In this document: positions 33,852 through 35,677 of the stretch, in pieces
Numbering within the stretch: position 1 is the first letter of the stretch
Layout of the letters: each line of letters opens with the position of its first letter
From: Nitrososphaerota archaeon
GTDB lineage: Archaea > Thermoproteota > Nitrososphaeria > Conexivisphaerales > UBA164
DNA: 40,335 nucleotides
Direction of reading: 5' to 3'
Assembly (NCBI GenBank): GCA_009903795.1
Contig: WYER01000021.1
Span: 1-40,335 of the forward strand
The notes under the pieces: generated by a model
Databases searched by the model: none
Told to the model about the DNA's origin: nothing
The model's input: the letters and a program-made list of their open reading frames with translations, nothing else
Made by a program: the position numbers and the translations under genes

Positions 33852-34357
33852 GATTTTTATTAAGTATACTTTTTATTTAAACATAGCTATAAAGATATAA
33901 ACATCATTACGTTTAGCCTCTTCGTTATCTGATATCCTCACTATCTTAAAAGGCTATTGATTCTCCGAGGTCTTAATAGCTATATCCCTTTAAGGTGCTG
34001 CTCTGTTATGAAACACAAGGCATGAAAGCGGTCTAGCAATGCTCTGCAATAGCATTTCTGTTACTTTCCTGAGCATTTTCAGTAAACTGTTAAGGTCTGA
34101 ATGAAGTTTATGCACAAGGGGACTATAGCTCCTATCTAAGTGCTTGATGTTAAATTTTATCATTAAGCAAATTAAATTTCTACAATTATATTGATTCTAT
34201 AGCTTTCATCATTGCTATAAGTTGAGCTAATAGACCAGTAAAAAGATCAAAGTGCTTATAAAAGGTTATTGTTTGTTCGATCTTAAACCGTTTCATCTAA
34301 AAATATGGTACAATAAAATATAGATAAACGTAAATTTATTTATTTTATACATAAAAT
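33852..34357. other. 506-base gene-poor spacer
   Basis: The region is AT-rich and carries a 6-bp inverted repeat with 7-nt loop (AATGCT 34038-34043, AGCATT 34051-34056), the possible 57-codon frame at 33990-34163, and a TATA-like TTTATTTATTTTA about 20-27 bases before the 34358 gene. I found no convincing tRNA, box C/D RNA or transposase. It may hold remains of an old gene. Confidence 0.4.
33990..34163 (-). CDS. Possible 57-residue small protein
   Basis: ATG 34163 opens a 57-codon frame on the minus strand ending in TAA at 33990. It is rich in Leu, Ser and basic residues (SPLVHKLHSDLNSLLKMLRK) with an amphipathic helical centre. A TATA-like AATATAATT lies about 26 bases upstream. There is no recognised family, and chance openness cannot be excluded at this length. 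Confidence 0.22.
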   Translation of the reverse strand: MIKFNIKHLDRSYSPLVHKLHSDLNSLLKMLRKVTEMLLQSIARPLSCLVFHNRAAP

Positions 34358-35677
34358 ATGTTCAAATGTTACAAGTGCGGTCACAAGCAGAGAGATCCTG
34401 GAAGATGCGAGGTGTGCGGCTCGGCTACAACTTTTGTGCCTGATAACTTTAGCGATATTGCAGGAAAGGAGATTGCTGATCTTTCGCAGGAAGGCATATG
34501 GAGATACTCTTCATTGCTACCAAACTTTATGGAGAAAATCACCCTCGGCGAAGGGCAAACGCCGTTGCTAAAAGCATACAGATTAAGCAAGAGCCTCGGA
34601 GTCGAGCTCTATATAAAGAACGAATCAGTAAATCCAACTGGCTCTTATCTGGACAGGGGATCTGCGATAGCTGTTAGCTATGCAGTTTTTGCCAGAAAGA
34701 AAGAGATTGCTTGCGAGTCAAACGGCAACGTAGGCGCATCTTTAGCTGCTTATTCTGTAAGGGCCGGGTTATCCTGTTCTTTGTACTACAGTGAGATAAG
34801 GAGCCTGGGCAAGCTATATCAGACGCTTGCTTACGGGGCAAAGGCTATAAAAGGCAAAATACCTGAAAACGTTGATAGCAATGTCCACGTGAGTGGAGAA
34901 TCTGACTCTTATTTTCTTACAGGGATGAAAACTCTTTCTTACGAAATATTTGAAAAAGCAAGGGACATGTTTGATTACATATTCATGAGCGTTGGCGAAG
35001 GAGGGGGTATTTCAATGCTCTTTGCCGGCTTTCAGGATCTGTTTGAGCTCTACAGAACCAGGATTCCCTCTTTGGTTGGCGTATATCTTACTAACAGGAG
35101 TAACGTTGTAGATGACCTTGTAACAGGCGGTATGCACTCAGCGCTGGCTGATTTTGCTATCAAGGTAACAAACGGGTTCAAGATAAAAGTTGAAGACGAA
35201 GAAGTCATAGAGGCAGAAAAGATGTTAGCGAGGGCCGAAGGACTCTTTGCGGAGCCATCAGCTTCGGTTGCTTTGGCCGGTCTTATAAAGGCGGTAGACT
35301 GGAACCTGTTGAATAAAGGAAGTAAGATCCTGTACATACTAACAGGAACAGGCCTGAAGGATCCTGTGGTAATCGGGACTTTTTTAGGCATTAAAGACAG
35401 GAACGGGTCAGATAAAGTTATAACTAAAATGAGTGACACAAAAAAGGCAATCCTTAATATACTTTATGTATCTCCAGCTTATGGCTACTATATATGGAAA
35501 AAACTGAAGGAGTTTGGGATTGAAAAAACATTGCCTGACGTATACGTTGCGCTCACAAATCTTCAAAAAGAAGGACTGATAGAAGTAAAAGAAGTAAAAA
35601 AAGAAGGAAGAACGAGCAAGCTCTATGAACTAACTCAGAAGGGTAGAAAGTTTATAGAACTTTTCCTTTCATACTGA
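34358..35677 (+). CDS. Threonine-synthase-like pseudoenzyme fused to a PadR-like winged helix
   Basis: The 439-residue protein starts with a zinc ribbon (Cys4, Cys7, Cys17, Cys20) as in archaeal threonine synthase. The PLP fold-type II core has LGEGQTPLLKAYRL, KNESVNPTGSYLDRGSA (about 87-103), ESNGNVGASLAAYSVRAG, a GEGGGISMLFAGF phosphate loop and ILTGTGLKDP. In threonine synthases the phrase is NPTGSFKDRG; here Leu98 stands where the PLP-binding Lys belongs, so normal catalysis is not expected. Residues about 366-435 form a winged helix (KAILNILYVSPAYGYYIWKK, PDVYVALTNLQKEGLIEV, KLYELTQKGRKFIEL) resembling PadR. A ligand-sensing transcription factor is inferred. Confidence 0.85.
   Translation: MFKCYKCGHKQRDPGRCEVCGSATTFVPDNFSDIAGKEIADLSQEGIWRYSSLLPNFMEKITLGEGQTPLLKAYRLSKSLGVELYIKNESVNPTGSYLDRGSAIAVSYAVFARKKEIACESNGNVGASLAAYSVRAGLSCSLYYSEIRSLGKLYQTLAYGAKAIKGKIPENVDSNVHVSGESDSYFLTGMKTLSYEIFEKARDMFDYIFMSVGEGGGISMLFAGFQDLFELYRTRIPSLVGVYLTNRSNVVDDLVTGGMHSALADFAIKVTNGFKIKVEDEEVIEAEKMLARAEGLFAEPSASVALAGLIKAVDWNLLNKGSKILYILTGTGLKDPVVIGTFLGIKDRNGSDKVITKMSDTKKAILNILYVSPAYGYYIWKKLKEFGIEKTLPDVYVALTNLQKEGLIEVKEVKKEGRTSKLYELTQKGRKFIELFLSY

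What the first reader, a model, noticed from the sequence alone, without database searches (positions are those of the whole stretch)
34358..35677. Threonine-synthase-like pseudoenzyme fused to a PadR-like DNA-binding domain
Seen: zinc ribbon, PLP-enzyme motifs, Leu98 in NPTGSYLDRG where threonine synthases have Lys, and a C-terminal winged helix. Known: the Lys forms the PLP aldimine and is essential in fold-type II enzymes. Inferred: a catalytically dead threonine synthase repurposed as an amino-acid or PLP sensor that controls transcription, analogous in concept to GabR/MocR regulators but built from a different PLP fold.
Basis: partly seen in the sequence, partly recalled or inferred. Interest (0 to 1): 0.8.

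Follow-up and report, generated by a model that had tools for sequence, protein, structure and literature searches.

The report
Dead threonine synthase as vitamin-B6 regulator
An archaeal protein filed as threonine synthase has lost the one lysine that such an enzyme needs and gained a DNA-binding tail; its many relatives sit beside vitamin-B6 synthesis and uptake genes, often with a shared operator-like DNA site, so it is most likely a B6-sensing gene switch of a kind not yet described.

Summary
Window 34358-35677 encodes 439 aa: zinc ribbon, threonine-synthase-type fold (PF00291), then a PadR-type winged helix (PF03551), with Leu98 (CTG) where the PLP lysine belongs. It is not a one-off: 76 archaeal relatives read in full never have Lys there (Arg/Leu/Met/Ile/Val/Phe), while the rest of the PLP pocket is nearly invariant. 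Fourteen more, fetched as full-length profile matches and not for their residue, also lack Lys. Members of NCBI's PRK05638 'threonine synthase' family examined here are such proteins. The gene lies next to an ECF-transporter S component in 46 of 90 loci and head-to-head with pdxST (PLP synthase) in 5. That S component's one strong solved relative is HmpT, a pyridoxamine carrier. A palindrome, TATATAAG-N6-CCTATATATAGG, sits at the regulator's promoter; 12 of 14 loci not used to derive it carry it. Most carrier genomes lack pdxS. Best reading: a PLP/B6-responsive repressor of B6 acquisition, an archaeal counterpart of bacterial PdxR on a different PLP fold. For the window's own protein the B6 link is by inheritance: no B6 gene is adjacent, and its candidate operator (TTTATACATAAA, 34344-34355) is weaker. 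Ligand and DNA binding are untested.

The parts
34358..35677 (+). Lys-less threonine-synthase-like regulator, 439 aa (stop included)
   Evidence: ORF, Pfam PALP + PadR; AlphaFold2 mean pLDDT 89.3; Foldseek best hits are threonine synthases, E 3e-27
34367..34417 (+). zinc-ribbon cysteines C4, C7, C17, C20
   Evidence: Cys in 96-97% of 76 family members; C17 and C20 invariant in alignment A1
34538..35347 (+). PLP-fold (fold type II, PALP) domain, residues 61-330
   Evidence: PF00291, 161.5 bits
34649..34651 (+). codon 98, CTG = Leu, at the site of the PLP Schiff-base lysine
   Evidence: sequence; never Lys in 76 relatives nor in 14 loci not chosen by residue
34718..34729 (+). SNGN loop; N124 aligns with the Asn that contacts PLP O3' in threonine synthase
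   Evidence: N124 invariant in A1, 93% in the wider set; role from knowledge of ThrC structures
35342..35359 (+). TGTGLK motif; T329 aligns with the residue that contacts the PLP ring nitrogen
   Evidence: T329 95%, G332, L333, K334 about 95-96%; role from knowledge
35366..35437 (+). low-confidence linker between the two domains (residues about 337-360)
   Evidence: pLDDT below 50 at 346-356
35450..35656 (+). C-terminal PadR-type winged helix, residues 365-433
   Evidence: PF03551, 50.5 bits; G376, Y377, Y396, L399 invariant in A1
34344..34355 (.). candidate operator TTTATACATAAA, 2 nt before the start codon
   Evidence: palindrome YYTATNNATARR near the start in five genomes of family f1; found in 0.6-1.9% of shuffled upstream regions. 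The 14-mer TTTTATACATAAAA (34343-34356) has one other exact copy in the genome, inside a coding sequence

Best explanation
The protein is a transcription factor, not an enzyme. An ancestral threonine synthase lost its Schiff-base lysine and gained a C-terminal PadR-type winged helix. The kept PLP pocket now binds PLP (or a B6 vitamer, or a PLP-amino-acid aldimine) reversibly, as a signal. When B6 is plentiful the dimer binds a palindrome just downstream of the TATA box and represses B6 acquisition genes and itself; when B6 is scarce repression is lifted. Targets in the family: an HmpT-like ECF S component (uptake) and/or pdxST (synthesis). Shown computationally: architecture, Lys loss in every member examined, retained pocket, gene neighbourhood, operator-like palindrome. 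Inferred: ligand, dimer, direction of regulation, and that the window's own copy keeps the family's role.
For: (1) Residue 98 is never Lys in 76 relatives (R 43%, L 28%, M 14%, I 7%, rest V/F), while E65, K87, P93, T94, S96, D99, R100, N124, S128, G215 and G332-K334 are about 93-100% kept. Many of the 76 were found by a non-Lys pattern, so I also checked 14 full-length PRK05638 matches not chosen that way: none has Lys. The 19 loci L073-L091, also chosen by profile only, all have Arg. (2) Neighbours: ECF S component adjacent in 46 of 90 loci (25 downstream same strand, 18 head-to-head); PdxS head-to-head with PdxT behind it in 5; S component, ABC ATPase and T-like gene follow the regulator in L170, L172, L173. 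PdxS and PdxT are above NCBIfam cut-offs, S component is PF07155. (3) The S-component profile hits one solved chain strongly, 4HZU chain S (E 9e-23; next 0.41). That is HmpT, from which pyridoxamine was extracted (PMC4860826). HmpT's predicted B6-contact residues are kept: E41 as E/D 28/28, Y120 28/28, N140 25/28, Q143 27/28; H84 is mostly Lys here. (4) Palindrome CCTATATATAGG with at most 1 mismatch at 13 of 22 head-to-head promoters, against 0.03 expected and 0 for the backward pattern; in 14 later loci not used to derive it, 12 have it within 2 mismatches, nearly all with a TATA box 6 nt upstream. In G326 and G492 the only exact genome copy is at this promoter. (5) 16 of 84 carriers have pdxS, against 171 of 314 non-carriers. 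(6) Intact ThrC-type paralogues exist in the same genome.
Against: No ligand or DNA binding has been measured. The window's gene has no B6 gene beside it (neighbours: deoC, proB-like kinase, NUDIX); the own pdxST operon (G000:C20) has no matching operator within 400 nt, and the genome has no PF07155 hit above cut-off. The operator in the window's clade is AT-rich and statistically modest. Eight loci sit beside intact thrC, which would also fit a threonine regulator. PF07155 is named for riboflavin and the family may carry several vitamins. The carrier/pdxS contrast is confounded by phylogeny.
Confidence: 0.7

Rival explanations
1. The protein senses threonine, phosphohomoserine or another amino acid and controls threonine biosynthesis, as an inactive paralogue of the pathway enzyme.
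For: In 8 loci of one family (L139-L145, L175) it lies beside intact thrC in the opposite orientation, some with hom and an ACT-domain gene nearby. The fold's ancestral substrate is phosphohomoserine.
Against: Confined to one family of genomes; in most of those the ECF S component follows downstream. Elsewhere the partners are ECF-S or pdxST. MocR-type regulators also have PLP-dependent enzymes such as threonine synthase in their regulons (PMC5320631), so thrC next door does not contradict a PLP sensor.
Confidence: 0.12
2. It is a regulator, but of another vitamin carried by the ECF system (riboflavin, hydroxymethylpyrimidine/thiamin).
For: PF07155 is called a riboflavin S component; an AIR-synthase/ThiL/HypE-like gene lies near in 17 loci.
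Against: Head-to-head pdxST in 5 loci; HmpT is the only strong solved relative and its B6-contact residues are kept; the sensor is a PLP fold.
Confidence: 0.1
3. It is still an enzyme: PLP chemistry by another residue, or non-PLP chemistry, with the wHTH for something else.
For: Most catalytic-framework residues are kept.
Against: The lost residue is the one that forms the aldimine and does acid-base catalysis, and it is replaced by Leu, Met, Ile, Val, Phe or Arg without a rule; Lys-bearing paralogues are present.
Confidence: 0.05
4. Decaying pseudogene or assembly error.
For: None beyond the missing lysine.
Against: Open reading frames in all relatives read, 82-92% identity within the genus, conserved cysteines and wHTH.
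Confidence: 0.01

Closest known systems
Threonine synthase (ThrC; e.g. B. subtilis 6NMX/6CGQ, T. thermophilus 1UIM, A. aeolicus 2ZSJ)
   Same: Fold and PLP-pocket residues other than Lys; best sequence and fold matches; the Lys-bearing archaeal paralogues share the zinc ribbon
   Different: No Schiff-base lysine; C-terminal wHTH added; below the ThrC family cut-off (106.8 of 167.1 bits)
NCBIfam NF004170 / PRK05638 'threonine synthase'
   Same: Same full-length architecture; match 2-435 of 442
   Different: The window's protein is below its cut-off (224.6 of 421). Members over the cut-off examined here (L073-L076) have Arg at the Lys site, so the family's name appears wrong
PdxR and other MocR/GntR regulators (GabR, TauR)
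   Same: wHTH joined to a PLP-enzyme fold; control of pdxST, pdxK, pdxU (PMC5320631)
   Different: MocR uses fold type I with an N-terminal GntR wHTH; here fold type II, C-terminal PadR-type wHTH, no Lys, archaeal
RbkR (archaeal riboflavin kinase/regulator; PMID 28073944 as cited in PMC8305020) and ThiR (from memory)
   Same: Archaeal vitamin regulators made of an HTH and an enzyme domain
   Different: Other folds and vitamins; RbkR is described as still an enzyme, whereas here the catalytic residue is gone
PadR family regulators
   Same: wHTH over the PF03551 cut-off; sequence matches to 6ABT, 6ABQ and 4ESF
   Different: Here the wHTH is the C-terminal domain behind a PLP fold and not the main domain of a small protein
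HmpT ECF S component (4HZU chain S; PMC4860826)
   Same: Closest solved relative of the neighbour in 46 of 90 loci; four of five B6-contact residues kept
   Different: H84 is mostly Lys in the archaeal proteins; not adjacent in the window's genome

Membership tests
Threonine synthase (EC 4.2.3.1) | Schiff-base lysine in [N]PT.S[FY]KDRG | tested here: not met
   Leu98; no Lys in 76 + 14 relatives
Threonine synthase (EC 4.2.3.1) | score over the thrC equivalog cut-off (TIGR00260) | tested here: not met
   106.8 bits against 167.1
Threonine synthase (EC 4.2.3.1) | ThrC fold and PLP-pocket residues | tested here: met
   Foldseek E 3e-27 to 6NMX; N124, S128, G215, T329, G332-K334 kept
Threonine synthase (EC 4.2.3.1) | conversion of phosphohomoserine to threonine | not testable with these tools
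   needs purified protein
PadR-like DNA-binding domain | PF03551 over gathering score | tested here: met
   50.5 bits, cut-off 27; also met in L187, L158, L170, L130, L151, L184, L140; no hit in L165, L166, L179
MocR/PdxR regulators | N-terminal GntR-type wHTH | tested here: not met
   wHTH is C-terminal and PadR-type
MocR/PdxR regulators | fold type I (aspartate aminotransferase) sensor | tested here: not met
   fold type II PALP/ThrC fold
MocR/PdxR regulators | control of pdxST / B6 transport genes | tested here: inconclusive
   neighbourhood and promoter palindrome in relatives, not adjacent in the window; no binding test
MocR/PdxR regulators | binds PLP | not testable with these tools
   pocket kept except Lys
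NF004170 / PRK05638 | score over the curated cut-off | tested here: not met
   224.6 of 421 bits
NF004170 / PRK05638 | full-length architecture incl. C-terminal wHTH | tested here: met
   match 2-435 of 442 positions

The most novel reading that the evidence does not exclude
A previously undescribed, widespread archaeal family of vitamin-B6 sensors: threonine-synthase fold without its lysine, used as a reversible PLP receptor, with a C-terminal PadR wHTH, acting on a conserved operator to control pdxST and an HmpT-type B6 importer. It would be, to my knowledge, the first fold-type-II PLP sensor built into a transcription factor, and the ECF S component would be an archaeal B6 importer.
Probability: 0.65. 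Interest if true: 0.88.

Novelty: new variant of a known kind. Interest (0 to 1): 0.8.

Why it matters
A 2023 survey of PLP pathways notes that few B6 regulators are known (PdxR-type) and that B6 transporters are unsolved in most sequenced prokaryotes (PMC9997740). This family would help fill both gaps for many Thermoproteota, most of whose carriers seem to lack de novo PLP synthesis. It also shows how an enzyme can become a receptor by losing a single residue while keeping its cofactor pocket, and it implies that a curated 'threonine synthase' family is misnamed. I found no description of it in ten full-text searches of an open-access library, which does not cover most subscription journals.

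Tried and rejected
Shared operator between the window's gene and the own pdxST: none within 400 nt; a TTTATGAATAAA lies 843 nt upstream, taken as chance. The other exact copy of TTTTATACATAAAA in the own genome lies inside a coding sequence. CCTATATATAGG as a genome-wide regulon marker in AT-rich genomes: no excess over the backward control in several, so it is used at promoters only. Tree: Lys-less proteins are not one group on the best tree, but one clade is not rejected (p-AU 0.19), so a single origin is neither shown nor excluded. Pattern hit G069 (L180) is not a family member; G384 and G376 were treated as false hits from their matched letters but not checked. The contig accession JAGDXJ010000011 is not held with annotation. 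PRK05638 is in no paper held.

Full report
THE OBSERVATION. The ORF at 34358-35677 encodes 439 aa. Pfam finds PALP (residues 61-330) and PadR (365-433), both over cut-off. Codon 98 is CTG, so the motif reads NPTGSYLDRG where threonine synthases have Lys. Independently assembled relatives at 92, 83 and 82% identity, and at 47-50%, have Leu at the same place. The genome (1.36 Mb, 33 contigs, 92% complete; named near relatives are Conexivisphaerales / Nitrososphaerales / Thaumarchaeota MAGs) has four other ThrC-type proteins with Lys.

A FAMILY, NOT AN ODDITY. Searches by protein, by NCBIfam profile and by degenerate DNA patterns gave relatives across the phylum. A pattern for the motif with the Lys codon excluded hits 87 of 398 phylum genomes, in 54 of 164 genera. 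In 76 loci read in full the residue is R (43%), L (28%), M (14%), I (7%), otherwise V or F. Because that pattern excludes Lys, I checked 14 loci picked only as full-length matches of the PRK05638 profile; all 14 lack Lys (V, L, I, T, R). L073-L091, also picked by profile, all have Arg, and four of them are over the family cut-off. The 21 homologues without the tail used for comparison were chosen for having Lys, so they are no independent test; but no full-length, tail-bearing match with Lys turned up. NCBI's 'threonine synthase' PRK05638 therefore seems to be a family of non-enzymes; the window's protein itself scores below its cut-off.

THE POCKET IS KEPT. In the 60-row alignment A1, E65, K87, P93, T94, S96, D99, R100, N124, S128, G215, G332, L333 and K334 are invariant; T329 and G330 nearly so. 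From knowledge of ThrC structures, N124 and T329 are the residues that hold the PLP ring. A protein that had stopped binding PLP need not keep these; one that still did PLP chemistry should keep the Lys. That combination is what a reversible PLP receptor would look like (inference). AlphaFold2 gives a confident two-domain model (mean pLDDT 89) with a floppy linker at 346-356; its nearest solved folds are threonine synthases. Zinc-ribbon cysteines are kept in 96-97%.

NEIGHBOURS POINT TO VITAMIN B6. Clustering of flanking genes and six-frame searches show an ECF S component next to the gene in 46 of 90 loci and PdxS head-to-head, PdxT behind it, in 5 (L126, L151, L187, L194, L195). PdxS and PdxT exceed curated cut-offs. 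In L170, L172 and L173 the order is regulator, S component, double ABC ATPase, and a membrane protein in the place of the T component (the last has no Pfam hit). The S-component profile has one strong solved relative, 4HZU chain S, E 9e-23, which is HmpT; mass spectrometry identified pyridoxamine as its bound substrate (PMC4860826). E41, Y120, N140 and Q143 of HmpT are kept in 25-28 of 28 archaeal proteins, E41 in part as Asp; H84 is mostly Lys.

WHO CARRIES IT. Of 84 carrier genomes (pattern hits less three doubtful), 16 have pdxS; of the other 314, 171 have it (odds ratio 0.2). Phylogeny confounds this: one large family without the regulator always has pdxS in the sample. It still means that most carriers seem to depend on uptake.

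THE OPERATOR. Upstream regions of head-to-head loci share a palindrome, first seen in L151, L156 and L158. Around the start codon (160 nt upstream to 30 nt inside), 13 of 22 head-to-head loci have CCTATATATAGG with at most one mismatch; shuffles give 0.03 and the backward pattern 0. The 14 loci fetched later were not used to derive it; 12 have it within two mismatches, five exactly, nearly always as TATATAAG-N6-palindrome by the start codon. Five of these 14 belong to the 22. In G326 and G492 the single exact copy in the genome is at this promoter. Position between TATA box and start suits a repressor (inference). The Arg-type members with ECF-S downstream mostly do not show this site, so they may use another one.

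THE WINDOW'S OWN COPY. Its neighbours are deoC and a proB-like kinase upstream, on the other strand, and a NUDIX gene downstream. Near the start stands TTTATACATAAA (34344-34355); the four relatives of family f1 read there have TTTATACATAAA, TTTATATATAAA or TTTATCTATAAA. Each is found in 0.6-1.9% of shuffles, so support is modest, and the relatives are not independent. In L184 and L186 the gene faces an APC-type permease and an aminotransferase; the L184 aminotransferase is nearest to pyridoxamine-pyruvate transaminase, 246 of 600 bits: suggestive of B6, not proof. The own pdxST operon shows no such site. So the B6 role of this particular copy rests on family membership.

PHYLOGENY. Trees of the PALP part (Lys column left out) place Lys-less and Lys-bearing proteins apart with two changes; a single clade is not rejected.

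COMPARISON. It works like PdxR (MocR) but is not one: other fold type, other wHTH, other domain order. It resembles archaeal RbkR in plan (enzyme domain plus HTH). I found no prior description in ten literature searches of an open-access library.

VERDICT. Real, general and probably new as a family; mechanism inferred, about 0.7; interest 0.8.

Noticed in passing
L129-L137, L150, L164, L177, L181, L182, L196-L198: An AIR-synthase-related gene (HypE/ThiL/SelD-like, below all cut-offs) lies near the regulator, in many loci right behind the ECF S component, 17 loci in all; since B6 kinases are missing in many prokaryotes it is a candidate for a new B6 kinase.
   Followed up: partly
L184:3843-6466, L186:7870-10520, L185:2199-3323: In sister genera of the window's family the regulator faces an aminotransferase, in two of the three with an APC permease in between; the L184 aminotransferase is nearest to pyridoxamine-pyruvate transaminase (246 of 600 bits): a possible alternative B6 or amino-acid uptake module.
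   Followed up: partly
NCBIfam NF004170 (PRK05638); L073-L091: A curated 'threonine synthase' equivalog family whose members examined here have Arg at the PLP lysine; the name is probably wrong.
   Followed up: yes
L165, L166, L167 (373-380 aa): Shortened Lys-less PALP proteins (NPTGSFMDRG) in two other families of genomes; L165 and L166 gave no PadR hit; role unclear.
   Followed up: no
G000:C20 (L204:4897-6494): The window's genome has pdxST, but the sister MAGs of its genus and family searched show no pdxS hit; either patchy loss, incompleteness, or a foreign contig.
   Followed up: no
L189 (G030), 4 bp downstream of the regulator: A pdxT-like match converges on the regulator gene: a further B6 link in the same family of genomes as L187 and L194.
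   Followed up: no
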